Source: Deltaproteobacteria bacterium (lineage in GTDB: Bacteria > Desulfobacterota > Desulfobacteria > Desulfobacterales > Desulfosarcinaceae). From it: a stretch of 49,128 nt of DNA. Below are positions 1 to 13,034 of this stretch, one piece after another. The position numbers were made by a program, and so were the translations under genes. The notes beneath the pieces are model-generated. The model made no database searches, was not told where the DNA came from, and saw only the letters and a program-made list of their open reading frames with translations. The stretch is from assembly GCA_020444075.1 (NCBI GenBank), contig JAHLLR010000037.1:1-49128 (forward strand), read 5' to 3'. Numbering within the stretch: position 1 is the stretch's first letter; each line of letters starts with the position of its first letter.

Positions 1-36
1 GACGGCTATTTAGGTATCGTAACCATCGGAGATTGA
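1..36 (+). CDS. C-terminal tail of an upstream gene (partial)
   Basis: The first frame reads eleven residues, ending in LGIVTIGD, and then TGA. The string resembles the end of a CBS-domain repeat (the usual pattern is GIVTIGD), but eleven residues are too few to assign a family. It may be chance. The 230 bp up to the next gene show no other convincing feature except the ribosome-binding site of that gene. Confidence 0.2.
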   Translation, partial: DGYLGIVTIGD

Positions 37-270
37 AAAAACAGGTCGCTGATTTCAATGATGAAATACTTCCTCAAATTCGAAGCGTTTGAAATCGCCC
101 TTAACGGGTATTCAAACATTATGGGCGGAATAAAGGAGAAGCAGGTATAGTGATTGTTCACGATTTAAAATATTTGACCCAAAAAGTTGTTTTTTTGCAA
201 TCACTTTAATACATTGAAACCGTAAATGGCACGGTTTGTATTTTTTTATAAAATTTGAAAGGTCTAAAGA

Positions 271-2604
271 ATGCCTGCAAAACCCTCCTGGGAAGAACTC
301 AATCAGAAGGTTAAAGACCTCGAAAGAAGCATTGAAATCTACCGTCCCTTCGTGGACAACAGTCCGGACCTTTTTTATCGAACAAGTCTGGATGGCAACA
401 TCCTGTATATCTCGCCTTCGGTTTATAGGCTCTCGGGTTATACCGTGAATGAAGCCATTGGAATGAATTTGGCTGAGGAGATATACCTTTTTCCTGATGA
501 ACGAAAGATTTTCATAGATAAGCTTCAGAAAAAAGGTCAGGTGGTTAATTTCGAGGCGCAATTGAAAAGAAAGGATGGGTCGGTATGGTGGGCATCCACC
601 AGTGCTCATTTCTACAAAGACAAAAACGGTAAAATACTCGGAGTTGAGGGTATAACACGCGATATAACTCGGTTAAAAATTGCGAACCAAGCACTGAAGG
701 CAAGTGAAGAACGGTTTAGGTTGGCATTCCTGACTATTCCTGACGCGATTAATCTGAACAGAGTCTCCGATGGGGTGTATATCGATATCAACGAAGGATT
801 TACTGATCTTACCGGTTATACGCGCGAGGACGTCATTGGAAAGCCATCTCTCGATATCAATATTTGGAAAGTGCCCGATGACAGAAAGCGATTGATAGAG
901 GGTCTGATGAAGACCGGCCATGTAAAAAATCTTGAAGCTCAATTTGTAAGGAAAAATGGGGATATTGGCATTGGCCTTATGTCGGCCCGGATCCTTCATA
1001 TTAACAGAGAAGAGGTCATTCAATCCATAACTAAGGATATTACTGAACGTAAAAATGCCGAGAAATCCCTGCGGAAAAGTGAGAGACGGTTACGTTTAAT
1101 CACGGACAACATGGCGGATGTAATCAGTCAAACGGATGCGCAGCTCAAGATTGTTTATACGAGTCCTTCGATAGAGAGAGTTTTCGGGTACCTTCCGCAA
1201 GAGATCGAAGGCAAATCTGGAACGGACTTGATTCATCCCGACGACCTCGAACAGATTCTCAAGGTAGCTGCAGAAGCCAGGCAACAGGGCGCTCAATCCG
1301 TTCTGCTGCAATACCGTTATCGACATGCAAATGGTAACTATATCTGGGTAGAATCTGCCACTCGCCTGCTTTACGGTGAACAGGGTCAATCGAAAGGGGC
1401 CATCTTCGTTACTCGTGACATCTCTGATCGCATGAAAGCCGAAAAAGAAAAGGTCGCACTGGAAAAGCAACTAATACAAGCACAGAAATTAGAATCCTTA
1501 GGCCGCCTTGCCGGAGGTGTTGCCCACGATTTGAACAACCTGCTTTCGCCGATACTTGGATACAGCGAACTGCTCTTAGATGATTTTGCAATGCATGATC
1601 AACGCAAGGAGAAGTTAGAGCAGATTAACATGGCAGGAATTAGAGCTCGGGATTTAGTGCGCCAACTGTTGGCTTTCAGCCGTAAACAAACGTTGGAATT
1701 CAAGTCAGTAAATATTAACAAGGTCCTTACAGATTTTGGGAAACTTCTTCAGCGTACCATTCGCGAAGATATTGAACTTAGCATTTGCCAATCACCCTTC
1801 ATAAAACCGGTAATGGCCGATATTGGCCAGATCGAGCAAGTGATAATGAACTTAGCATTAAACGCCGCAGACGCTATGCCTGAAGGAGGAAAACTGACAA
1901 TCGAAACGGCGCTTACGGAATTGGATGAAACGTATACGTCGACTCATCCGGTTGTCCAGTCAGGGGAATATGTAATGTTAAGTTTCACTGATACGGGACA
2001 CGGAATGGATGAGGGAACCCGGCTAAAAATTTTTGAACCATTTTTTTCAACCAAGGGCAAACAAGGGACCGGATTGGGGCTCGCAACGGTTTACGGTATT
2101 GTCAAGCAACACAACGGCAACATCTGGGCCTATAGTGAACCCGGCAAAGGATCGATTTTTAAGGTTTACTTACCAATTACCGAAAAATTACCGACTGATA
2201 TAACAATTGATAAAAAAACGAGTTCCGAGTTAGAAGGTTCTGAAACTATTTTGCTGGTAGAAGACGATACACAGGTGCGTGACCTTGCCTTTGAAATCCT
2301 CATGGAACATGGATATACTGTTTTAAAGGCTCAAAATGGAAAAGAGGCACTGAAAGTCAGTGCGTTGCATGAAGGCTCGATCAATCTGTTACTCACCGAT
2401 GTGGTTATGCCAGAGATGAATGGTAAAGACCTGTTTTTCAATTTAAGAAAAGCATATCCGAAAATGAAAGTAATCTATATGTCTGGATATACAGAGAATA
2501 TAATATCCCACCATGGTGTGCTTGATGAAGGATTGCGATTTATCCAAAAGCCTTTCACTGTTTACAATTTGGCGGCAAAAGTGCGGGATGCCCTTACTAA
2601 GTAG
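271..2604 (+). CDS. Hybrid sensor histidine kinase, three PAS domains plus receiver
   Basis: A 777-residue soluble hybrid kinase with no membrane segment, so it should sense a cytoplasmic cue. Three PAS/PAC units lie at about residues 20-130, 145-260 and 270-390. The phospho-acceptor helix carries VAHDLNNLL with His419. The HATPase domain (about 530-650) has the N-box [14 protein letters not shown], the G1 box DTGHGMDEG and the G2 box [15 protein letters not shown]-terminal receiver (about 660-777) has acidic residues VEDD, phospho-acceptor Asp710 in [13 protein letters not shown] and the KPF lysine. The ATG at 271 follows AAAGG. Autophosphorylation and intramolecular transfer to Asp710 are expected for this architecture. 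The output partner is not visible nearby and the ligand is unknown. Confidence 0.93.
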
Positions 2605-2799
2605 GAAGTTCCGTACATCTATGACAATTGAACGAGCTCTATATTGAACACTCCCCGCGGTAAGCCGCAGGAAGTGATTGGTCTGAAAAGGCAGTTATGC
2701 GCACCAGCGTAGAGAAAAAATCGATTTCCAGTTCGCTCGCCAACCTCGGCGCACCGGTGCCGGTATCGCTGTCACGGTTCACATTCAGGCCAGGATAAA

Positions 2800-3267
2800 T
2801 CAGGCGTCGTCCGTCATCTCCAGCTCGTGGGTAATCGTGATCGCCTCGACCACACTCTGGGCGGCCGGGCATAGCGTAATGTAATTGTTGAATGCATCCT
2901 CGGCATCCGGGCGCTTGTCCGCCGGCAGCTTGAGATAATAGTGGACGTTGATGCGCACGATTTTCAGCACACCGTTGACATTCTCGATATCGCCGGTGAC
3001 CGTCGCCATGTAGCGGTCCTGAAAGGTTCGGATCTTTTTTTTGGCCAGCACCGTGGCCAATGTGCCCATCATTCACCCGCCCACCGCGCCCACCAGATGA
3101 TCCAGGGTGGCGGCGTGTTCCTCTTCCGGGTCGACATTGTAAAATTTTTTGATCCCGCCGTGCACGCCATAATAAACCGGCTGGTCAAATCCCCGGATGT
3201 GGGCGATGCGGGTGGGTCCTTTTTCGCGGGTAATCGTGATGTGCGACTGATGAATGATCTCTCCCAT
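2800..3267 (-). CDS. OsmC-like peroxidase/redox protein, probable selenoprotein (Sec65)
   Basis: Read through one in-frame TGA (3075-3073), this gives a 155-residue protein of normal OsmC-family length. The half before the TGA ends TLDHLVGAVGG and the half after begins MMGTLATVLAKKK. In OsmC relatives this is where the catalytic Cys sits (GG-C-xxGT), so the TGA replaces exactly the peroxidatic Cys. The second conserved Cys is present in LCPAAQSVVEAI. OsmC-like selenoproteins are known. A hairpin just after the TGA fits a bacterial SECIS. Start ATG 3267 has AAAGGAAA upstream. The family reduces organic peroxides or acts on thiols. The alternative is a nonsense mutation, but the conserved sequence on both sides, the exact position and the hairpin argue against it. 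Confidence 0.82.
3041..3060 (-). promoter_or_regulatory. Candidate bacterial SECIS hairpin
   Basis: On the minus strand the TGA is followed by 12 nt, then a perfect 7-bp stem TTGGCCA / TGGCCAA closing the 6-nt loop CGGTGC. The loop starts 20 nt after the TGA and has a G at its second position. Known bacterial SECIS elements have an apical loop about 16-37 nt after the UGA with a G near the loop start, so spacing and loop both fit. It lies inside the coding sequence, as bacterial SECIS elements do. SelB binding is inferred. Confidence 0.7.
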
Positions 3268-3601
3268 GGTGGTTTCCTTTCCGTGAAGTGTTTGTTTTGT
3301 ATCGCAAAAACGGTGACTCAGAGGTTTCAGCGGGTTGTAGACGCCCGACTTCTGCGTGAGTGACAAGGGCTGGCGCTTTTTCCAATTCCAGCAACCCCGC
3401 TCAGGCAAAAAATAGGGATGCCTTGGCCGAATGTAAAATGGTCGCGCCATCCCCTTGAAACCAGAGGAGAAATCATATAGCGTTTATCTGTTTCGGAATT
3501 CCGGCAGCCCCGTTCCAATCAGACCCGTTGTGAAAATAAAATGTGAAGCGAGAATTGATCGGCTCATCTCACCATGAATAAAAAACCGGAGGGCTTCAAG
3601 C

Positions 3602-4663
3602 ATGACTTCCATAAAAATTGCGGTTATTCCCGGAGATGGCATCGGCAAGGAAGTCATTCCCGAAGGAATGGGTGCCCTGGAAGCCGCCGGGAGCAAGCAG
3701 GGCGTCAACTTTGAGTGGACAGAATTTGATTGGTCGTGTGAGACCTATCACAAAACAGGGCGCATGATGCCCGAAGATGGCATCGAGCAGCTGCGGCATT
3801 TCGACGCCATCTACCTCGGTGCGGTCGGTTTTCCCGGCGTACCGGACCACATCTCCCTCTGGGGGTTGCTGATACCCATCCGACGCGCCTTCGACCAGTA
3901 TGTGAACCTTCGTCCGGTGCGCTTGTTCGAAGGCGTACCCTGCCCGCTGGCGGGCAAGAAACCCGGCGACATCGATTTTTATGTGGTGCGGGAAAACGTC
4001 GAAGGTGAATACTCTTCCGTCGGCGGCATCCAGTATGAAGGCACCGAGCACGAAGTCGTGTCCCAGGTAAGCCTGTTTTCGCGCCGGGGAACCGACCGTA
4101 TTCTCAAATACGCATTCGAGCTTGCCCAAAGCCGGCCGGCCAGGCATCTGAGCTCGGCCACCAAATCCAATGGAATCTTCCACTCCATGCCTTACTGGGA
4201 CAGTCGGGTAAAACAGGTTGCCACGTCCTATCCAGGAGTCGCCGTCGACCAATACCATATCGACATCCTGACTGCGAATTTCGTGCGCATGCCGGAGCAT
4301 TTCGATGTCGTGGTCGGTTCCAATCTGTTTGGCGATATCCTGTCCGATCTGGGACCCGCCTGTGCCGGTACGATCGCTATCGCTCCCTCGGCGAATATCA
4401 ACCCCGAGAAGATGTTCCCGTCCATGTTCGAACCGGTGCACGGCTCCGCCCCCGATATTGCCGGCCGTGGTATCGCCAACCCCATCGGTACGGTCTGGGC
4501 CGGAGCGATGATGATGCAGCACTTGGGCTATCCCATGATACATGACACGGTGATGGAAGCCATTGAAACTATTCTGCGGGAAGGCAGGACCCTGACGCGT
4601 GACATGGGTGGACATGCCAGTACGCATGAACTGGGCCAGGCCCTGGTAGAGGCAATTAAATGA
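3602..4663 (+). CDS. Tartrate / D-malate dehydrogenase (isopropylmalate dehydrogenase family)
   Basis: A 353-residue beta-decarboxylating dehydrogenase that oxidises a 2-hydroxy acid with NAD+ and a divalent metal. The N-terminus has the family motif IAVIPGDGIGKEVIPEG. Other family features are the arginine-rich substrate stretch YVNLRPVRLFEG, the tyrosine region RENVEGEYSSVGG, and metal ligands in NLFGDILSDLGPACAGT. The C-terminal NAD site reads FEPVHGSAPDIAGRGIANPIG. The ENVEGEYS version and overall similarity point to the TtuC/DmlA (tartrate, D-malate) branch rather than LeuB. The ATG at 3602 follows GGAGGG. It stands alone, with about 330 bp upstream and 200 bp downstream in which I see no gene. 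Substrate choice between tartrate, D-malate and isopropylmalate cannot be settled by eye. Confidence 0.85.
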   Translation: MTSIKIAVIPGDGIGKEVIPEGMGALEAAGSKQGVNFEWTEFDWSCETYHKTGRMMPEDGIEQLRHFDAIYLGAVGFPGVPDHISLWGLLIPIRRAFDQYVNLRPVRLFEGVPCPLAGKKPGDIDFYVVRENVEGEYSSVGGIQYEGTEHEVVSQVSLFSRRGTDRILKYAFELAQSRPARHLSSATKSNGIFHSMPYWDSRVKQVATSYPGVAVDQYHIDILTANFVRMPEHFDVVVGSNLFGDILSDLGPACAGTIAIAPSANINPEKMFPSMFEPVHGSAPDIAGRGIANPIGTVWAGAMMMQHLGYPMIHDTVMEAIETILREGRTLTRDMGGHASTHELGQALVEAIK

Positions 4664-4880
4664 TGCAGAGCGATTGTACCGCATCAAACCGGATGAACAG
4701 AAAGAAACACAGCAAGCAAAGTTCCTTGTGAGCAGGATCGATCAATAATTGCGCTGCTCCCCCCGTTGATCTCGGTCCCTATCCCCTCCTGAAGCGCCGC
4801 CGGCTGCAATTGCATGTTTCTTCAAGATTGTTATTCTTAATTCACTGTAATCATTCACCTCATAATTGGAGAACCCATCC

Positions 4881-5741
4881 ATGGGCACTGTATTATGGTT
4901 TTTGATTCTTCTGCTGTTGAGTCTGGGTGCATGGGGGTTTCATCAATACCGGCGCCAGGAGCTAAAGATGCAAACGCTCAAACAATCCCTTCTGGAAATC
5001 AATCAAAAAGCCCATGAAAAAGAAGAAGCGCACACGAAAAACCAGGCCCAGTGGGAGCAGACCGAGGAAAAATTGCGCAGCTTCCTTCTGTTGATGGATA
5101 CCGTGATGAATACCATCCCCAATCCCATCTATTTCAAGGACGCCGAGGGTGTTTACCAGGGATGCAATAAAGTCTTTGCCAAACAGATCCTGGGCCTGAC
5201 CCGGGACCGGATCATCGGTAAACGCCCCATGGAAATGCCCGATCAGATCCCGGCCGATCTGGCCGCCGCCTATCAACGCGAAGAATACAAGATGATTGAC
5301 AAGGCCGGCTTTCACACCTTCGAGACCCAGGTCCAGTGCGCCGACGGACAGCGCCGGGATTATCTTTTCAGCCTGGCCCCGGTAATGGATCGCCAGGGCA
5401 ACCTGAGCGGCAGCGTGGCCGTGCTTTCGGACCTCACCGAAAAAAACCGTGCGGCCCGGCACCGCATGCAAAAGGAGAAGCTGGAAGGCATATTGGAGAT
5501 CGCCGGGGCTGTCTGTCATGAATTCAACCAGCCCCTGCAGGCCATCTCGGGCTACACCGAGCTGATGGCCATGAAACTGGATGGTCATGAAGCGCATTCT
5601 TATATCGACAAACTCACCGACCAGATTGAACGCATGCGTGACATCACCGACAAATTGCAAGGAGTCACCCGCTATGAGACCAAGGATTATGCCGGCAACA
5701 CCAAGATTATCGATATCAATAAGGCATCTGAAACACAGTAG
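4881..5741 (+). CDS. Membrane-anchored PAS protein with phospho-acceptor helix but no ATPase domain
   Basis: A 286-residue protein: one N-terminal membrane helix (VLWFLILLLLSLGAWGF), a charged coiled coil (about 25-70), a PAS domain (about 75-190, NPIYFKDAEG at its start), then a dimerisation helix with the phospho-acceptor motif VCHEFNQPLQAISGYTELM. It stops about 60 residues later, after RYETKDYAGNTKIIDI, with no N, G1 or G2 boxes, so the catalytic ATPase domain is missing. The stop is clean and I see no ATPase fragment downstream. It may be phosphorylated by another kinase, or may act as a histidine phosphotransfer scaffold; both are inference. ATG 4881 is preferred because GGAGA lies 8 nt upstream; a TTG at 4866 would place this site inside the gene. 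Confidence 0.8.
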   Translation: MGTVLWFLILLLLSLGAWGFHQYRRQELKMQTLKQSLLEINQKAHEKEEAHTKNQAQWEQTEEKLRSFLLLMDTVMNTIPNPIYFKDAEGVYQGCNKVFAKQILGLTRDRIIGKRPMEMPDQIPADLAAAYQREEYKMIDKAGFHTFETQVQCADGQRRDYLFSLAPVMDRQGNLSGSVAVLSDLTEKNRAARHRMQKEKLEGILEIAGAVCHEFNQPLQAISGYTELMAMKLDGHEAHSYIDKLTDQIERMRDITDKLQGVTRYETKDYAGNTKIIDINKASETQ

Positions 5742-6012
5742 GCGTGTGGCAAGCCGCTGAATTCCCATGCTTGCAGGACTCGCCGCAGATATCGTGGGCC
5801 GAACAGCGGGGTTTCAACCTGGATCAGGCCATCGACTATTCCAGAACGAAATGCCGAACGCCGCCACGCAAGGACGAACCTTTCTACCGGCGGTGTCCCT
5901 GCTATGCCGGTGATGATTTTCAGACCCTGCTGGCAAAAATCATCAAGGCCAGATCCCGTTAACCGACAAATCAAGATTGTCAGAAAAACATATCAAGGAA
6001 TCGACACCCGGC

Positions 6013-6954
6013 ATGAAAGCTGCCACGATAACCAGCTATGGCCCTCCTGACGTACTATCCATCCACGACATGCCGACCCCACGGCCCCGATCGGACGAAG
6101 TGCTCGTGCGGGTGCGCGCGGCAGCCATCAACCCCAAAGACACCTTTATTCGCAAGGGGCGCTTCAAGCGCTTTACCGGCAGGCACTTCCCCCTCCTGAC
6201 GGGCTTCGATTTCGCCGGCGAAGTGGCTGCGGTCGGCGCAGCCGTCACGGATACCACGGTAGGAGAGGCGGTCTATGGCATGCTGGACGGCTGGCAGGGG
6301 GGTGCCTGCGCCGAATATGTCGCAGTCAAGGCCGGAAGGTTCTGCAAAAAACCGGAAGGGGTATCTTTCGACGAGGCCGCCGCCCTTCCCCTGGTTTCGC
6401 TGACAGCCTTACAGGCCCTGCGCAACCATGCCGGCATCGCGTCGGGAATGCAGGTCTGCGTCAACGGGGCTTCGGGTGGCGTCGGCAGCATGGCCGTACA
6501 GATCGCCAAAATTATGGGGGCTGAGGTAACGGCCATCAGCAGCGAGCAGAACCACGACTTTCTGGAATCACTGGGCGCCGACCGCTGCATCGACTACCGG
6601 CACGGGGACATTGGCCGCGGGCGTCAATTTGAAATCTTTTTCGATGTCTTCGGCAATCGGCCGTTCAGATCAGTCAAACCGATCTTGAGCCGCCGGGGGG
6701 TCTGGGTCTCCACGGTAATCCAGCCGCATGTGTTTCTCAGCGTCGCCCTGACCCGGTTCTTTTCCCACCGCAAAGCCAAACTGGTGGTGGTCAAATCACG
6801 CGGCGAAGACCTTGCGCAGGTCCGTCGCTGGGTGGCCGCCGGCCTTCTGAGGCCAATTGTTCACGACGTATTCCCGCTGGAAAAAATCCGGGAGGCCCAT
6901 GTTCAGCAGGAAACCAAACACACCCGGGGGAAGATCGTCATCCACATTGGATGA
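6013..6954 (+). CDS. Zinc-independent medium-chain dehydrogenase/reductase (quinone-oxidoreductase-like)
   Basis: A 313-residue NAD(P)H-dependent oxidoreductase of the medium-chain superfamily. The N-terminal GroES-like half has AAAINPKDTFIRKG and LLTGFDFAGEVAAVG, typical of the quinone oxidoreductase branch. No catalytic or structural zinc cysteines are present. The Rossmann half has the nucleotide motif VNGASGGVGSMAVQIAK and ends TRGKIVIHIG, the usual family C-terminus. ATG 6013 starts right at the conserved MKAATITSYG with AAGGA upstream; a TTG at 5977 would add 12 residues unlike the family. The gene stands alone between the PAS protein and the convergent REC-HDOD gene. The physiological substrate (quinone, enone or aldehyde) is not predictable from sequence. 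Confidence 0.87.
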   Translation: MKAATITSYGPPDVLSIHDMPTPRPRSDEVLVRVRAAAINPKDTFIRKGRFKRFTGRHFPLLTGFDFAGEVAAVGAAVTDTTVGEAVYGMLDGWQGGACAEYVAVKAGRFCKKPEGVSFDEAAALPLVSLTALQALRNHAGIASGMQVCVNGASGGVGSMAVQIAKIMGAEVTAISSEQNHDFLESLGADRCIDYRHGDIGRGRQFEIFFDVFGNRPFRSVKPILSRRGVWVSTVIQPHVFLSVALTRFFSHRKAKLVVVKSRGEDLAQVRRWVAAGLLRPIVHDVFPLEKIREAHVQQETKHTRGKIVIHIG

Positions 6955-6987
6955 TCGATTCTATGGGAGGAAAAATCGTTTAACGTT

Positions 6988-8268
6988 TCAACCGAACATA
7001 TACCGGAGTTGTTCCATGCGTTGAGCGATCTCGATAATTGCCTGGTCCTTCATCTGCCCGCTGATCCCCAGCGCTTCCATGGAATCGTTTAGGGATTGCG
7101 AAGTGGCGTTCCCGAAACCGAATCCGGCCGCCTTGGCAAGCAGGTCGGCCTGTTGAAGCGCCTGCAGGGAATGGGAAGCCGTTTCTCTGTCCCCGAGGTG
7201 GTGGTGACGCTTGACAATCGATACAAAAGTATCGGGGTACCCCAGTTTTCCCAGAATGGTTGCTCCAAGGCGTTCATGGTGTTCATCCATCAGCGCTTGA
7301 AGGTGGTCAACCTGGACATCCTGTTTGGCATGCGTTCGCTGCTCCAGGTCACCGGATACCTGGATCAGGAACAATTTGCCGATATCATGCAGCAGTCCGA
7401 TGGAGAAAAGATCCTTATCAACCTGCCATCCAAAGGTTTTAGCCACCATCTCAGTGGTATGGGCACAGGCCAGCGAATGCCACCAGAGGTTCTCCACGAT
7501 TGCTTTGTAAGTCGGGTTATTGGTGGAAAAATAGCCACGGCAGCAAATGGACATGACCACTTCCCGGGTGCGGTTGAGTCCCAGACGATTGGTGGCCTGG
7601 GCAAGGGTCGTATTCTTTTCAATTCCCCGGTAAAATGCTGAATTCGACACGCTGATCAGTTGCGAGGCGACCGACAGGTCCTGCTTGAGCAGATCCACCA
7701 CGTCTTTTATCTCCGCACCACAGTCGATCAACTGCCGTACTTTCATGGCGATTTTCGGTGCAGGAGGCAGCTTTAAATCCCCGTTTTTCAGCTTCCGGGA
7801 GATCGTATCGAGAATCCTGGCGGCGGACACAGCACTTTCGGAGGGACGGGTATCGGTGGTGGCCAATGATTTTCCGGCTGACAGGCGATGATCGTCCAAC
7901 TTGCCGAGAAGACTGTTTTTATCCAGGGGCTTGGCGAGGAACTCATCGCACCCATTTATCAAACAATCCGTTACTATTTGATGCCCGGAAAGGGCGGTAG
8001 CCACAAAAATGCGTGTCCGTTGATTGGATGGAACATCATACTCCTCCTCAATCGATCTGAGCGCCTTGAGGATGGAATCATCACCGGTGTCGGTAACCTG
8101 GATATCGACGATAACGAGATGGTATGGCGTCCCGGCATCGATGGCGGACCGAAATCGCGCCAGCGCTGAATCACGGTCCCCGGTCTCCTCGCAAAGCCCA
8201 AGATCCTGCATAAGTATTTTAGTATGGGTACAGCTGAATACGTCATCGTCGATGATCAACACCCGCAC
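6988..8268 (-). CDS. Response regulator with HDOD output domain
   Basis: A 426-residue protein with an N-terminal receiver (about 1-125: acidic IDDD, phospho-acceptor Asp55 in LVIVDIQV, Lys113 in LAKPLDK) joined to an HDOD domain (about 160-370). The HDOD part keeps an HD pair at 294-295 in GLLHDIGKLF and the typical VDLLKQDLSVASQLISVSNSAF stretch. HDOD proteins lack proven phosphodiesterase activity in most cases and serve as signalling scaffolds in motility, c-di-GMP or stress control. The start is GTG 8268, with AAGGAG 8 nt upstream. It converges with the oxidoreductase gene. The cognate kinase is unknown; the ATPase-less PAS protein and the hybrid kinase in this window are candidates by proximity only. 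Confidence 0.92.
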   Translation of the reverse strand: MRVLIIDDDVFSCTHTKILMQDLGLCEETGDRDSALARFRSAIDAGTPYHLVIVDIQVTDTGDDSILKALRSIEEEYDVPSNQRTRIFVATALSGHQIVTDCLINGCDEFLAKPLDKNSLLGKLDDHRLSAGKSLATTDTRPSESAVSAARILDTISRKLKNGDLKLPPAPKIAMKVRQLIDCGAEIKDVVDLLKQDLSVASQLISVSNSAFYRGIEKNTTLAQATNRLGLNRTREVVMSICCRGYFSTNNPTYKAIVENLWWHSLACAHTTEMVAKTFGWQVDKDLFSIGLLHDIGKLFLIQVSGDLEQRTHAKQDVQVDHLQALMDEHHERLGATILGKLGYPDTFVSIVKRHHHLGDRETASHSLQALQQADLLAKAAGFGFGNATSQSLNDSMEALGISGQMKDQAIIEIAQRMEQLRYMFG

Positions 8269-8515
8269 AGTTACACTCCTTTACGCCCTAGGCGAAATAT
8301 TGCCGGTGACCGGTTTCACAAAAAACCAGTGTTTATTACCACGGGTGCCTTATTTTGCAAGCCTGTTCGATGTCAATCGCTGGGTTCAACCGGCAAAAAG
8401 TTATTGTTTCATAACCGTTAACAGGCTGTTGAAAAGCTATCGGACGGGGCTATACACGATACATTTAATGGTTGGGGTCGTGCATTCAACGCCGATTGCG
8501 CCAGTTATCCATAAT

Positions 8516-8538
8516 TGAAATTTATAGGATAAATTTCA
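8516..8538. repeat. Perfect 23-bp palindrome
   Basis: Two perfect 10-bp arms, TGAAATTTAT and ATAAATTTCA, flank the three bases AGG. It lies in the 430-bp stretch between the REC-HDOD start and the small membrane-protein gene, about 160 bp upstream of the latter. Size and symmetry fit a dimeric regulator site. No second copy is seen in the window. The rest of that stretch shows no gene. Confidence 0.35.
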
Positions 8539-8699
8539 TTCAAAAAATCTTGTTTTAAAATTATTTATAATGAGCTATGGTTTAATCATGCTGGAATTTG
8601 CCCGTTGCGCGGTCCGGCCGGGCGCCACTTAATGAGAGAGTGGAAAGCTTTCGCCAGGGTCCTTCAATGCGAATAACCGCTTCAAGCAGGAGGTGGGAA

Positions 8700-8909
8700 A
8701 TGGGAATACATTTCGAATCGATCGCCACACGGCTCGAGGAATCGGTCCTCCACTTTTTTTCGCCGAGCGGTTTGTTGACCGTCGTCACCCTGATACTCTT
8801 GAGTGTCGTGCTTTTCAGCGGCAGCAGTATCGAACGGCGCACTCTGGACAGGCCGGATGCTGAATATCACCAGGCCGCCGTCTCTCCGATTCTTGATACG
8901 GCCAGGTAA
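8700..8909 (+). CDS. Small single-pass membrane protein, unknown function
   Basis: A 69-residue protein starting at ATG 8700, with a near-ideal AGGAGGT at 8688-8694. Residues about 1-20 are amphipathic (FESIATRLEESVLHFF), followed by one hydrophobic segment SGLLTVVTLILLSVVLF and a charged, proline-containing tail. I do not recognise the family. It ends directly against the stop codon of the convergent potC gene (8909/8910), leaving no room for a terminator between them. The strong ribosome-binding site is the main reason to accept it. Confidence 0.55.
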   Translation: MGIHFESIATRLEESVLHFFSPSGLLTVVTLILLSVVLFSGSSIERRTLDRPDAEYHQAAVSPILDTAR

Positions 8910-9764
8910 TTACTCTTTTTTGCGACTGAAGGAAAGATTGATCACCGCCAGCAAGGACGTGCCCACGATGAGCAGGAAGGAGACGGCGTTGATGACCGGC
9001 GTGGAGCCGTCGCGCACCTGAAGATAGAGGGTGATGGGCAAGGTGGTCTGAGAGCCCACCAGAAAGAGGGTGGTGTTAAAGTTTTCGAAAGACATCAGAA
9101 ATGCCACAGCAAAGGCGCCGATGATGGCGGGACGCAGGAATTTGAGCGTGATGTGCCAGATCACCTGCAGCCGGGTGGCACCGAGGTTGAGGGCCGCCTC
9201 TTCCAGGCTGCGGTCGAATTTTTTCAGCCGAGCCGACACGACCAGGGTCACCAGCGTCGATATGAAGGAAAACTGCCCCAGCACCACTAGCCAGAACCCC
9301 GGTCGGAAAAGGGGCACATCCATACTTAAGGTGTTTTCGAAGAACATCCCCAGAGTGTTGGCGAACAGCAGGATGGAAATACCTAATATCACGCCGGGGA
9401 CCACCAGGGGCGCCAGCATCAGAAAATAAAGGGCCTGCTTGAAGCGGAAATTCTCCTGCTCGAAGAGAAATGCTCCGCAGGTGCCGACAAGGGTCGAAAA
9501 AATCGACACCCAGAAGGCGACCTTGAAGCTAACCTGGATAGCGGAAAGATTGAGCGAGTCGTGAAAGATTCCCACCCGCTCAGGCAGATCCGCGGTGAAC
9601 CACTCGAGGGTGAAGCCTTTCCAGGGAAGCGCCGGAAACTGGGAGTCGTTGAAGGCCAGCACACAGGTAACGAACAGCGGGGCGAAAAGGAAAACGAAAA
9701 ACAAGGCAACGTAGAGCTTGAAGCCCAGCGTGTAAGATCGGGTGTTGGGCAGTGAACGGATCAT
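8910..9764 (-). CDS. potC: Spermidine/putrescine ABC transporter permease PotC
   Basis: A 284-residue inner-membrane permease with about six hydrophobic helices. It carries the binding-protein-dependent permease EAA loop (SLEEAALNLGATRLQVIWHITLKFLRPAI), which contacts the PotA ATPase. The N-terminus (SYTLGFKLYVALFFVFLFAPLFVTCVLAFNDSQFP) is typical of PotC. Start ATG 9764 overlaps the potB stop as ATGA, so the pair is translationally coupled. A longer reading frame upstream lies inside potB and is rejected. Last gene of the minus-strand potDABC operon. Polyamine specificity is by family; other amine-type substrates are possible. Confidence 0.9.
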   Translation of the reverse strand: MIRSLPNTRSYTLGFKLYVALFFVFLFAPLFVTCVLAFNDSQFPALPWKGFTLEWFTADLPERVGIFHDSLNLSAIQVSFKVAFWVSIFSTLVGTCGAFLFEQENFRFKQALYFLMLAPLVVPGVILGISILLFANTLGMFFENTLSMDVPLFRPGFWLVVLGQFSFISTLVTLVVSARLKKFDRSLEEAALNLGATRLQVIWHITLKFLRPAIIGAFAVAFLMSFENFNTTLFLVGSQTTLPITLYLQVRDGSTPVINAVSFLLIVGTSLLAVINLSFSRKKE

Positions 9765-10627
9765 TGAACCACCTGGCTGAGTTTCTGGCGGGTAAGCTTT
9801 AACCCGATCCAGATAATCGAGGAAGAGAGAATCAGCAGGAGGAAGCCGAATGCTGCACCCTGATTCCAGTTGAAGCTGGCGATAAACTGATTGTAGATCT
9901 GTTCGGTGAACCACAGGGAATTCTTGCCCCCGATCAGGTTGGGGGTGAGGTAGTTGCCCAGGGTGAGCATGAAGACCACGATTCCCCCGGACACAATGCC
10001 GGGCATGGCATGGGGGATGATGATCCGCGTGACAATCGAAAAAACATTTCCCCCCAGATCATAGGCCGCCTCGATGAGGCTGTCATCCAGGCTTTCCAGC
10101 ACCGATATCAGCGGCACCACCATGAACAGCATGGAGGTGTATACCAGGCCCATGACCATGGTGACATCGTTGTACAGCATTTCCACGGGGCGCTGCAACA
10201 GCCCGGCTTTAAGCAGGAAGTGGTTGATGACGCCGCTTTCCCGGAGCAGGATCATCCACCCGTAAACCCGCACCAGTTCGCTGACCCAAAAGGGCATGAG
10301 CAGCAGCAGGCTGAGAAAACCGCTGAAGCGTGGCGAAACGACCTTGGTGATGTAAAAAGCTACCGGCAGGGACACGGCGAAGGTGATCATGGTGGTGAGA
10401 ATGGCATACACGGCGGTGCGGGTGAACGTTCTCCAGTAGACCGGTTCGTCAAAAAAATTCAGGTAATTGACCAGGCTCCACACCGTGGCTCCGGCATCGT
10501 CTTCGATCCGAAAGGACATCAGCAGCAGATCGATGTGGGGCAGGACAATAAGCAAAAACAGCCACATGAGCACGGGCGTAACAAAGATCAGGAAAGGCAA
10601 TGTGATGCGGGCCCGGGCGGCGTTCAT
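9761..10627 (-). CDS. potB: Spermidine/putrescine ABC transporter permease PotB
   Basis: A 288-residue permease with about six transmembrane segments, beginning ARITLPFLIFVTPVLMWLFLLIVLPHIDLLLMSF. The EAA loop reads SLIEAAYDLGGNVFSIVTRIIIPHAMPGI, the contact to the ATPase. It forms a heterodimeric channel with PotC. Start and stop overlap both neighbours by 4 nt (ATGA with potA upstream and with potC downstream), which shows a tightly coupled operon and expression of the subunits in fixed ratio. Confidence 0.9.
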   Translation of the reverse strand: MNAARARITLPFLIFVTPVLMWLFLLIVLPHIDLLLMSFRIEDDAGATVWSLVNYLNFFDEPVYWRTFTRTAVYAILTTMITFAVSLPVAFYITKVVSPRFSGFLSLLLLMPFWVSELVRVYGWMILLRESGVINHFLLKAGLLQRPVEMLYNDVTMVMGLVYTSMLFMVVPLISVLESLDDSLIEAAYDLGGNVFSIVTRIIIPHAMPGIVSGGIVVFMLTLGNYLTPNLIGGKNSLWFTEQIYNQFIASFNWNQGAAFGFLLLILSSSIIWIGLKLTRQKLSQVVQ

Positions 10628-11709
10628 GATGCCTTGAAGCAGCTGGCGGAACGGGCGCTCCAGCCGATATCGACACGGTCACCGGCATTCAGGTGATCGT
10701 ATTGTCGGTTCTGGGGAAGGGCAATCATCAGCTCTTTCTCGCCGTCCACAGGCGTGGCCAGCAGGCGGCTGTTGGCTCCATCGAAGAGGATCGACTTGAT
10801 GACCACGGGCAGCCGGTTGAAATCGTCCAGTCCGGCATCCGGGGCAATGATGATGGCCTCGGGACGGATAAAAAACGCCACCGGTGTGCCCGAAGGAAGA
10901 TCAGGGGCGGCGCCGGCGGTGAAGATCTGGCCGTCGGTGGTTTCGATCGTGCAGAGATCCTCCCGGTGATCGGCCACGATACCCTTCCAGGCGTTATTGT
11001 CTCCCACAAAACGGGCCACGAAGGGCGTCTTCGGATGGGCGTATAGCTTGCGGGGGGTATCCACCTGTTCGAACCGGCCGTTGTTCATGACGGCCACGTG
11101 GTCGGACATGACCAGGGCCTCCGACTGGTCGTGGGTGATGTAGATGAAGGTGGTCCCCACTTGGGCCTGCAGCTTTTTCAGTTCTACTTTCATCTGTTCG
11201 CGAAGCTTCAGATCCAGGGCTCCCAAGGGTTCGTCCAGCAGCAGCACGGCAGGGTCCAGCACCAGGCAGCGGGCAATGGCCACCCGCTGTTTCTGCCCGC
11301 CGGACAACTGATCGATCTTTTTATTGCCGAACCCCGGTAGTCCCACCCGCTCCAGGATGTCGGCCACTTTTCTATCGATTTCGGGCTTTTTCTCCTTGCG
11401 CCGCTGGAGGCCGAAGGCGATGTTCTGAGCCACGTTCATCATTGGAAAAAGGGCCAGGTGCTGGAAGATCAGGTTCACCGGCCGGCGGTTGGGCGGGAGG
11501 TTCGCCATGTCGTTGCCGCGGATAAGAATCCGGCCCGCAGTAGGTTCGATAAAGCCGGCGATCATTCTTAATAGTGTGGTTTTTCCGCAGCCCGACGGAC
11601 CCAAAATGGAAAAAAATCGGCCCTGCTCCACCGCAAAGGAAACCTCATTCACGGCGGTGAAATCGCCAAAGGTTTTGGTCACATTTTCAACGGACAGGTC
11701 TAAGGCCAT
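10624..11709 (-). CDS. potA: Spermidine/putrescine ABC transporter ATP-binding protein PotA
   Basis: A 361-residue ABC ATPase. Walker A GPSGCGKTT is at 37-45; the signature LSGGQKQRVAIARCL, Walker B VLLLDEPLGALD and the switch His in YITHDQSEA follow in order. The C-terminal third (about 240-361) is the TOBE/regulatory region seen in the CUT1/PotA group. It energises uptake through PotB-PotC. The gene starts 184 bp after the potD stop, a gap that contains a large stem-loop. Its TGA overlaps the potB ATG. Confidence 0.93.
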   Translation of the reverse strand: MALDLSVENVTKTFGDFTAVNEVSFAVEQGRFFSILGPSGCGKTTLLRMIAGFIEPTAGRILIRGNDMANLPPNRRPVNLIFQHLALFPMMNVAQNIAFGLQRRKEKKPEIDRKVADILERVGLPGFGNKKIDQLSGGQKQRVAIARCLVLDPAVLLLDEPLGALDLKLREQMKVELKKLQAQVGTTFIYITHDQSEALVMSDHVAVMNNGRFEQVDTPRKLYAHPKTPFVARFVGDNNAWKGIVADHREDLCTIETTDGQIFTAGAAPDLPSGTPVAFFIRPEAIIIAPDAGLDDFNRLPVVIKSILFDGANSRLLATPVDGEKELMIALPQNRQYDHLNAGDRVDIGWSARSASCFKAS

Positions 11710-11776
11710 ATCAATCGCAGTTCGTTTTAATTCAATGTTACCATCGTGTTTGTCCAGAAGGTGGTAGGTTTAGGTT

Positions 11777-11859
11777 CAGGCCACGGCCGCAGCGTTTCCG
11801 CACCCGCCGGCGTAGCAACGCTTCGTCGAGGATTGCGGAAACGCGAGAACGCCGGCCTG
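11777..11859 (-). other. Large intercistronic stem-loop between potD and potA
   Basis: Perfect 11-nt arms GCGTTTCCGCA (11792-11802) and TGCGGAAACGC (11834-11844) are nested inside outer arms CAGGCC (11777-11782) and GGCCTG (11854-11859). No U-run follows, so it is not a simple terminator. It sits directly 3' of the gene for the binding protein. Such hairpins often stabilise the binding-protein message or partly stop transcription, giving more receptor than transporter. This role is inferred. Confidence 0.6.
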
Positions 11860-11892
11860 GACTTCAAGATGCCGCTTCCGGATGAACACGCA

Positions 11893-12957
11893 CTAGTTGG
11901 CGGCCTTGACCTTATCCAGGATCAACCCTTCAATGGATTCCAGCTTGGCGGGAACCGGTGGATACCATTTAATGTTATCGATATCGGCCTTGGAAAAGGA
12001 ACGCTGGAAATTGGCTTTGACATCGGCATCATAATAGTCGATGGCCCCGGCGGATGCGGTGGCATATTTTTCCTTGTTGGTGAACACCGCCGCATTCTCC
12101 GGCTTCATCATGAAATTGATCCATTTGTATGCCGCCTCGACATTCTTGGCCTTGGCCGGAATGGTAAAGGTGTCGATCCAACCCAGGGCGCCGCTTTTGG
12201 GGGCAACGAAGTCGATATCCGGATTTTCGGCATGCATTTTCCATCCGCCATTATCCCAGGCCATGGCCACAAACACCTCTTCCGACCGCATGGACTGCAG
12301 CAGTGCGTCTCCATTGGTCCAGTAGTTTTTAACCAGTCCCTTGCCCTCGATCAGCTTTTCACCGACCCGCTCCATCAGCTTTTCATAGCCTTTCGGGTTG
12401 GCGTAAAGCACAAAGGGGTCCTGCTTCATGGAATAGGCGATACCGATCAGGGTGGGGCGTTTGAGCCGGTAGCTGATTCTACCTTTATAGGCCGGGTTAA
12501 GCAGGTCCTTGTAGTCTGAGGCTTCCGGAGCATATTTACGGTTTACGATGAGTCCCGAAGTGCCGTAAACATGGGGAACGGCATAACTCTTATCACCGAC
12601 CATGGTGTTTTTCTTCACGGCCTCCAGCATGGAGGGAACGATCTGGGCGGCATCCACCTTTGAATAGTCAATGGGCTGGTAGAGCTTGTACTTGACCTGT
12701 ACCGATGAAATGCGGTCCTGGCTGGGCTGGGCCAGATCAAACCCCGCTCCGCGGGTGGCACGAAGCTTGGCAATAATCTCTTCGTTGTTTGAATAGGTCG
12801 GCTTCACCGTAATTCCCGTCTCTTTTTCGAACTTGTCCATCAGCTCCTTGGGGGCGTACCCTTCCCAGGTAAGCAGTTCGAGGGTTTCGGCCTGGCACGA
12901 AAGGGAAAACGCAAAGACCAGTGATACTGCACAACATACAATCGCCAACTTTTTCAT
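11893..12957 (-). CDS. potD: Periplasmic spermidine/putrescine-binding protein PotD
   Basis: A 354-residue extracytoplasmic solute-binding protein. The signal peptide MKKLAIVCCAVSLVFAFSLS ends at about residue 23 with QAE. The mature part begins LELLTWEGYAPKELMDKFEKETGI, the standard start of PotD/PotF-type proteins. Polyamine-pocket features are visible in VYGTSGLIVNRK and in MAWDNGGWKM. First gene of the potDABC operon, with GGAGGAG before the ATG. The long leader contains two stem-loops. It captures polyamines in the periplasm and delivers them to PotB-PotC. Confidence 0.9.
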   Translation of the reverse strand: MKKLAIVCCAVSLVFAFSLSCQAETLELLTWEGYAPKELMDKFEKETGITVKPTYSNNEEIIAKLRATRGAGFDLAQPSQDRISSVQVKYKLYQPIDYSKVDAAQIVPSMLEAVKKNTMVGDKSYAVPHVYGTSGLIVNRKYAPEASDYKDLLNPAYKGRISYRLKRPTLIGIAYSMKQDPFVLYANPKGYEKLMERVGEKLIEGKGLVKNYWTNGDALLQSMRSEEVFVAMAWDNGGWKMHAENPDIDFVAPKSGALGWIDTFTIPAKAKNVEAAYKWINFMMKPENAAVFTNKEKYATASAGAIDYYDADVKANFQRSFSKADIDNIKWYPPVPAKLESIEGLILDKVKAAN

Positions 12958-12999
12958 TTTTCTCTCCTCCTGTTGTTTTGCGATGTCCGTAACACTGAA

Positions 13000-13034
13000 T
13001 TGAACCGCTGAAAAATTAGCACTGAGCGGTTCAA
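13000..13034 (-). promoter_or_regulatory. Stem-loop in the potD leader
   Basis: Perfect 10-bp arms TTGAACCGCT (13000-13009) and AGCGGTTCAA (13025-13034) enclose a 15-nt loop, starting about 43 bp upstream of the potD start codon. It could be an operator for a dimeric regulator or an RNA hairpin in the leader. No polyamine-specific family is recognised. Confidence 0.4.

What the first reader, a model, noticed from the sequence alone, without database searches (positions are those of the whole stretch)
2800..3267. OsmC-like selenoprotein with a SECIS-like hairpin
An in-frame TGA replaces exactly the catalytic Cys of an OsmC-family protein; conserved sequence continues on both sides. A 7-bp hairpin with a G in the loop starts 12 nt after the TGA, at the spacing known for bacterial SECIS. 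A standard annotation would split this into two false genes.
Basis: partly seen in the sequence, partly recalled or inferred. Interest (0 to 1): 0.8.

Follow-up and report, generated by a model that had tools for sequence, protein, structure and literature searches.

The report
OsmC-like selenoprotein subfamily, no cysteine forms seen
A gene of a probable sulfate-reducing bacterium uses one "stop" codon to insert the rare amino acid selenocysteine at the predicted active site of a small OsmC-type redox protein, and every relative of its branch whose site was read here has the same codon.

Summary
The finding is confirmed. On the minus strand, 2800-3267 encodes a 155-residue OsmC-family protein with an in-frame TGA (codon 65, 3073-3075). 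The codon aligns with the first conserved Cys of Cys-containing OsmC proteins; the second is kept as Cys133. A 7-bp hairpin (3041-3060) starts 12 nt after the TGA with G in its loop. It meets the published bacterial SECIS limits and pairs more often across relatives than the coding sequence alone predicts. Both halves are under purifying selection. The genome has selA, selD, two selB and tRNA-Sec(UCA). The gene's own terminator is also TGA, without such a hairpin. In 61 genomes whose site I read, 61 have TGA and none has Cys. The protein fails the NCBIfam model for OsmC-type selenoproteins (14.9 vs 95 bits) and the published UxxT motif (it has UMMG), and a tree puts it on a branch apart from that group. 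OsmC-like selenoproteins have been known since 2005, so the kind is known; this apparently Sec-only subfamily is not in the lists I could read, and two likely papers were not held. Most likely role: a Sec-type OsmC/Ohr peroxidase with a Sec65-Cys133 selenenylsulfide cycle (inferred).

The parts
2800..3267 (-). OsmC-like selenoprotein gene, 155 residues plus terminal TGA stop
   Evidence: both halves under purifying selection
3073..3075 (-). TGA codon 65, read as selenocysteine; aligns with the first OsmC Cys
3041..3060 (-). SECIS hairpin: 7-bp stem (3060-3054 with 3047-3041), 6-nt loop 3053-3048 with G at 3052
2869..2871 (-). codon of Cys133, the second OsmC Cys (presumed resolving residue)
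   Evidence: invariant in the 43 rows; aligned with the second Cys of Cys-type relatives
2800..2802 (-). terminal TGA, without a SECIS-like hairpin, taken as stop
3275..3282 (-). purine-rich ribosome-binding site (GGAAAGGA), 7 nt before ATG
   Evidence: sequence printed; assignment by eye

Best explanation
The gene makes a 155-residue OsmC-fold protein in which UGA codon 65 is decoded as selenocysteine by the cell's SelA/SelB/SelD/tRNA-Sec system. Decoding is directed by the stem-loop that begins 12 nt downstream; the terminal UGA lacks such a loop and acts as a stop. Shown from sequence: gene, family, conserved UGA, SECIS, machinery. Inferred: Sec65 attacks a peroxide or similar oxidised substrate, Cys133 then forms a Sec-Cys selenenylsulfide with it, and a dithiol donor (in Ohr/OsmC, lipoyl-bearing proteins; recalled) reduces it. 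I hold Sec insertion at about 0.97 and a peroxidase-type role at about 0.55. The protein belongs to a subfamily that is, as far as sampled, always Sec and separate from the OsmC selenoproteins modelled by NCBIfam.
For: Pfam OsmC 40 bits. AlphaFold2 model (mean pLDDT 80.6): Foldseek gives 51 PDB matches with E<=0.001, and 46 of the 50 rows listed bear Ohr/OsmC-type names. The Sec column equals the Cys column in 5 of 5 nearest Cys-type relatives and in the genome's own Cys paralogue, and Cys133 aligns with their second Cys. TGA in 8 of 8 named relatives, in 45 of 45 rows (these 8 included) and in 17 of 17 further loci. Purifying selection on both sides: pN/pS 0.02-0.17 before and 0.09-0.42 after the TGA in six comparisons. 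SECIS: 96.1% of cells paired vs 92.1% in shuffles and covariation score 0.280 vs 0.207 (0 of 500 shuffles as high for each), 15 double-change cells vs 4.9 (0 of 500), pairing 4.9-52.6% when the partner is slid; G in loop position 1 or 2 in 44 of 44 rows. Machinery. The terminal TGA has no hairpin by the same test.
Against: No protein or selenium data. Two of the five covariation measures do not exceed shuffles (pairs with a double change, and further pair types: 86 of 500 each), and the slide by -1 also shows 15 double-change cells. selA was not found in 1 of 37 phylum genomes with the gene (G355, 82% complete) nor in 1 of 8 named genomes (D. cetonica draft); assembly gaps could explain both. 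selA occurs in 355 of 395 sampled genomes anyway, so co-occurrence proves little. The divergent row L065 keeps only 3 of the 7 pairs, though another hairpin is possible there. The model is weak at residues 34-42, and its PDB matches have TM-scores of only 0.40-0.61 with rmsd 10-14 A, so the overall superposition is poor. Two sequence searches of the PDB gave no match. No partner gene is conserved nearby, so the substrate is a guess.
Confidence: 0.92

Rival explanations
1. A pseudogene, or a sequencing error that created a nonsense codon.
For: Standard ORF calling splits it. One relative (L141) does look broken.
Against: The same TGA is in 61 of 61 genomes read, some of them single-contig assemblies; purifying selection continues after the TGA.
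Confidence: 0.01
2. Two cistrons coupled by termination-reinitiation at the overlapping UGA-AUG (TGAATG), giving a 64-aa and a 90-aa peptide.
For: TGA is followed at once by ATG in 43 of 44 rows.
Against: In the sister clades (15 loci L126-L140, and L065) TGA is followed by CTG, so the restart codon is not kept while the TGA is. The cut would pass through the central helix 47-76 of the model. It leaves the hairpin covariation and the Cys alignment unexplained.
Confidence: 0.03
3. UGA is a general sense codon (Trp or Cys) in this organism.
For: UGA is in frame and conserved.
Against: The same gene ends with TGA in the window and in 5 of 8 named relatives, if TGA is a stop there; Sec machinery with a UCA-anticodon tRNA-Sec is present. 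In-frame TGA elsewhere in the genome was not counted.
Confidence: 0.005
4. A selenoprotein, but not a hydroperoxidase: e.g. an OsmC-fold thiol/persulfide or other redox transferase.
For: Identity to the listed Ohr/OsmC structures is only 10-18%; a subfamily segment around residues 34-43 (GVHGGIKxFY in the window's clade) with H36, and H51, invariant in 43 rows; a probably anaerobic lineage (by nearest matches).
Against: Both OsmC redox positions are kept.
Confidence: 0.4

Closest known systems
OsmC-like selenoprotein of the Sargasso Sea / GOS sets (PMC1088965, 2005; PMC2398784, 2008), redox motif UxxT
   Same: OsmC domain, Sec in the redox motif, bacterial SECIS
   Different: Motif here is UMMG (UxxG), or ULTG in sister clades. 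I saw table rows and figure legends only, not those sequences.
NCBIfam NF041052 OsmC_like_Se, OsmC-related (seleno)protein
   Same: OsmC family; two members read here have U at the same column
   Different: The window protein scores 14.9 against a cut-off of 95. The members used in the tree lie on another branch next to Cys forms. They lack the GVHGGI segment.
Ohr / OsmC organic hydroperoxide reductases (PF02566; e.g. 6ebg, 1nye, 1qwi)
   Same: Family profile, fold match, two redox positions (65 and 133 here)
   Different: Sec instead of Cys; 10-18% identity; the Ohr catalytic Glu (recalled) was not shown to be present.

Membership tests
Bacterial selenoprotein | in-frame UGA aligned with Cys of homologues, protein conserved on both sides | tested here: met
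Bacterial selenoprotein | bSECIS: apical loop 3-9 nt with G in first two positions, UGA-to-loop distance 16-37 nt (limits from passages of PMC13188914) | tested here: met
   loop 6 nt, G at position 2, distance 19 nt; pairing and covariation across 44 rows (three of five measures beyond all shuffles)
Bacterial selenoprotein | selA, selB, selC, selD in the genome | tested here: met
Bacterial selenoprotein | selenium in the protein | not testable with these tools
   needs mass spectrometry or 75Se labelling
OsmC/Ohr superfamily PF02566 | profile score over the curated cut-off | tested here: met
   40 vs 27.5 bits
OsmC/Ohr superfamily PF02566 | OsmC fold | tested here: met
   best matches are Ohr/OsmC, E down to 4.5e-06, but TM-scores 0.40-0.61 and rmsd 10-14 A
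NF041052 OsmC_like_Se | score over 95 bits | tested here: not met
   14.9 bits
OsmC-like selenoprotein (UxxT) | UxxT motif | tested here: not met
   U-M-M-G at 65-68; T is at +4
Ohr hydroperoxide reductase | peroxidatic residue, resolving Cys, and catalytic Arg and Glu (recalled) | tested here: inconclusive
   Sec65 and Cys133 present; R14 and R20 invariant but not placed against Ohr; Glu not identified
Ohr hydroperoxide reductase | hydroperoxidase activity | not testable with these tools
   enzyme assay needed

The most novel reading that the evidence does not exclude
This is an obligately selenium-dependent branch of the OsmC superfamily that gained Sec independently of the OsmC selenoproteins modelled so far, spread through the phylum and never reverted to Cys. 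Its SECIS moved along the mRNA: the apical loop is 19 nt after UGA in the window's clade and 25 nt in the sister clades.
Probability: 0.5. Interest if true: 0.55.

Novelty: new variant of a known kind. Interest (0 to 1): 0.42.

Why it matters
The gene is split by standard ORF calling and falls far below the curated OsmC selenoprotein model, so a fairly widespread gene (37 of 395 genomes in the phylum sample; 49 of 242 in the order sample) is probably misannotated. [quoted passage not shown] At superfamily level that holds here too (OsmC), but within this subfamily no Cys form was found, which makes it a test case for what Sec does that Cys cannot, and for how SECIS elements shift within coding sequence.

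Tried and rejected
Pseudogene, reinitiation and reassigned UGA were considered and rejected (see rivals). PDB sequence searches with the protein (E<=0.001) and with the 43-row profile (E<=0.01) gave 0 matches, so only the fold search links it to solved structures. Rfam at gathering thresholds: 0 matches in the window. Plasmids: no match. Viral contigs: 27 candidate stretches, none confirmed.

Neighbourhood: 29 regions (window 1-13000, the 8 named loci with up to 3 kb flanks, and 20 regions with about 5 kb flanks, out of the more than 40 loci then held) were compared. One cluster of 22 regions and one of 7 overlap the gene itself, as judged from their representative ORFs. One cluster of 7 regions looks like sensor kinases (by eye). 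No other cluster spans more than 3 regions. No operon partner was found.

The intended search of another phylum via L019 turned out to cover the same phylum, with the matches I compared at the same coordinates as under new handles, so it is not independent. It does show that after the family and its fragments the next matches are Cys-type OsmC proteins at 48-53 bits, against 180 or more for complete family members. Long branches in the tree make the sister group unsure; the Sec2 label needs two changes there, so 'sister clades' is descriptive.

Literature: searches. PMC1088965, PMC2398784, PMC9312934, PMC13188914, PMC5029168, PMC8318568: passages only. PMC12013277: passages and section 7. Not held: Haft and Tolstoy 2025 (asked for by PMC id and by DOI) and the 2007 Olavius selenoproteome paper. 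The supplementary selenoprotein tables of PMC8318568 were not seen. So absence from print is claimed only for what I read.

Full report
Observation. The finding is on the minus strand of the window. The frame opens at ATG 3265-3267 behind a purine-rich GGAAAGGA, meets TGA at 3073-3075 (codon 65) and ends at TGA 2800-2802. Under table 11 it appears as a 125-aa ORF ending at the TGA (with an upstream in-frame start) and a 90-aa ORF starting at the ATG next to it. Read through, the 155 residues match PF02566 at 40 bits; the C-terminal piece alone reaches 27.6 and the N-terminal piece has no match at E<=0.001.

Conservation. A scan of genome contigs gave 8 loci, all with TGA at the site, 63-95% identical; two of the closest are Desulfosarcina (94 and 95%), which is why I call the host a probable sulfate reducer. 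In a phylum sample the 9-row profile hit 37 of 395 genomes, the window's own included, at E<=1e-10. One of the 37 (G192) is a fragment that stops before the site. For the other 36 the site reads TGA; with the 8 named loci this is 45 of 45 rows, one genome (G047) being there twice as two contig ends. In an order sample 49 of 242 genomes matched at E<=1e-6. Of 52 match rows 50 contain a TGA and the other 2 do not reach the site; three of these genomes (G000, G105, G315) are also in the first sample. I read 17 of these loci, one per genome: 17 of 17 have TGA at the site; L141 also has a later TAA and L142 runs into masked bases. For the rest I have only the tool's count of stops. That makes 61 genomes read (window, 8 named, 35 others, 17). 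None has Cys. In one search, on the same phylum, the first non-Sec matches are Cys OsmC proteins at 48-53 bits.

Is it coding after the TGA? In six pairwise comparisons with the window, pN/pS is 0.02-0.17 before and 0.09-0.42 after the TGA. The downstream part evolves as protein, somewhat less constrained than the upstream part.

SECIS. After UGA come 12 unpaired nt, then UUGGCCA-CGGUGC-UGGCCAA. Loop size (6), G position (2) and UGA-loop distance (19) lie within the limits quoted in PMC13188914. In 44 rows the seven pairs form in 96.1% of cells; 15 cells show changes on both sides against 4.9 in shuffles; sliding the partner drops pairing to 4.9-52.6%. RNAalifold finds the same stem unaided. 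If codons are resampled synonymously, rows with at least 6 pairs fall from 43 to a mean of 22.2 (maximum 30 in 2000 trials), so the stem is not only a by-product of the conserved LA-x-x-LA peptide. Against this: two of the five covariation measures are within shuffles (86 of 500 each) and the slide by -1 has as many double-change cells; such a hairpin follows 2.6% of all TGA triplets in the window; the full window stem arises in 4.9% of synonymous resamplings; single-sequence folding of the window is unremarkable. The terminal TGA has no such hairpin even at 5 bp. In the sister clades a different hairpin, about GCGCGC-UGGxx-GCGCGC with its loop at distance 25, can be drawn in 15 of 15 loci (end pairs G-U in some); L131 has a change on both sides and L139 on one side that keep pairing. 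I did not test that stem against coding constraint. Some of those loci and L065 also allow a GU-rich hairpin at distance 19, so which one works there is not settled.

Machinery. The genome (5.59 Mb, 95.75% complete) has selA, selD with its own in-frame TGA, a tRNA-Sec with anticodon UCA and two full-length selB. Of the 37 phylum genomes with the gene, 36 are among the 355 of 395 with selA. This is close to the base rate and proves little. Of the 8 named genomes 7 have selA.

What the protein is. The AlphaFold2 model from the 9-row alignment has mean pLDDT 80.6, with residues 34-42 poorly predicted. Foldseek gives 51 PDB matches with E<=0.001; 46 of the 50 rows listed carry Ohr/OsmC-type names, the other 4 (2ql8 twice, 1ml8, 2egt) being a putative redox protein and uncharacterised entries. 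TM-scores are 0.40-0.61 and rmsd 10-14 A, so the chain is matched piecewise rather than as a tight superposition. Sec65 lies in helix 47-76 and Cys133 between two helices. In the alignment with Cys relatives, Sec65 matches the first Cys and Cys133 the second. Across 43 rows the invariant residues include R14, R20, H36, H51, D56, residue 65, E95 and C133.

Mechanism. Established for Ohr/OsmC (recalled): the first Cys is oxidised by a hydroperoxide, the second forms a disulfide with it, and lipoyl proteins reduce it. By analogy Sec65 would be the attacking residue and Cys133 the resolving one. This step is inferred. No conserved neighbour points to a substrate or reductant.

Relation to known families. 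OsmC-like selenoproteins were reported in 2005 (3 sequences, UxxT) and 2008, and are listed as UxxT in the 2022 and 2026 reviews. NCBIfam has NF041052, OsmC-related (seleno)protein. The window protein scores 14.9 there against a 95-bit cut-off, and the NF041052 search of the own genome found only the Cys paralogue on contig C93, below the cut-off. NF members read here (L069 FULLTQL, L070 FUMFSQL) have Sec at the same column but different surroundings. In a tree of 67 rows all 58 Sec rows of this family lie on one side of a 100/100 branch, and the two NF041052 Sec rows lie elsewhere next to two Cys proteins. The separating branch is long (6.0) and the tool warns that long branches meet, so independent origin is suggested, not shown. 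Of the deep-Sep paper's nine new families (section 7) none is named OsmC; three (DG, DW, DF; DW occurs in Desulfosarcina) are hypothetical proteins said to have no conserved domain, whose sequences I did not see. Two likely places of prior mention are not held. Novelty is therefore claimed only for the lists I read.

Verdict. The kind is known; the subfamily appears new, fairly widespread and Sec-only in the samples. Sec-only rests on the genomes of one phylum (plus one scan of genome contigs that reaches close relatives only) and on profile thresholds; a Cys member elsewhere is not excluded.

Noticed in passing
own genome, L002 (contig C27) and L003 (contig C148): Two full-length SelB genes over the curated cut-off (372 and 296 bits), 31% identical over 635 residues; the lower-scoring one lies directly after the tRNA-Sec(UCA) gene. 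In the order sample 9 of 96 genomes list two or more SelB over the cut-off, counted by eye from a table that was cut at its weak end. A paper search for two or multiple SelB found nothing relevant.
   Followed up: partly
L126-L140, L065: Sister clades carry ULTG instead of UMMG; L126-L140 allow a SECIS-like hairpin with its loop 25 nt after UGA instead of 19.
   Followed up: partly
window 2800-3267: The same gene uses TGA both as Sec codon and as stop; so do 5 of 8 named relatives.
   Followed up: yes
L069 (genome G198): NF041052-type OsmC gene with in-frame TGA in a genome given as 100% complete that shows no selA match at E<=1e-60.
   Followed up: no
L014 (Desulfopila sp. IMCC35006): A Desulfocapsaceae copy is 92% identical to the window protein and nests among Desulfosarcina copies in the tree, which suggests transfer between families.
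   Followed up: no
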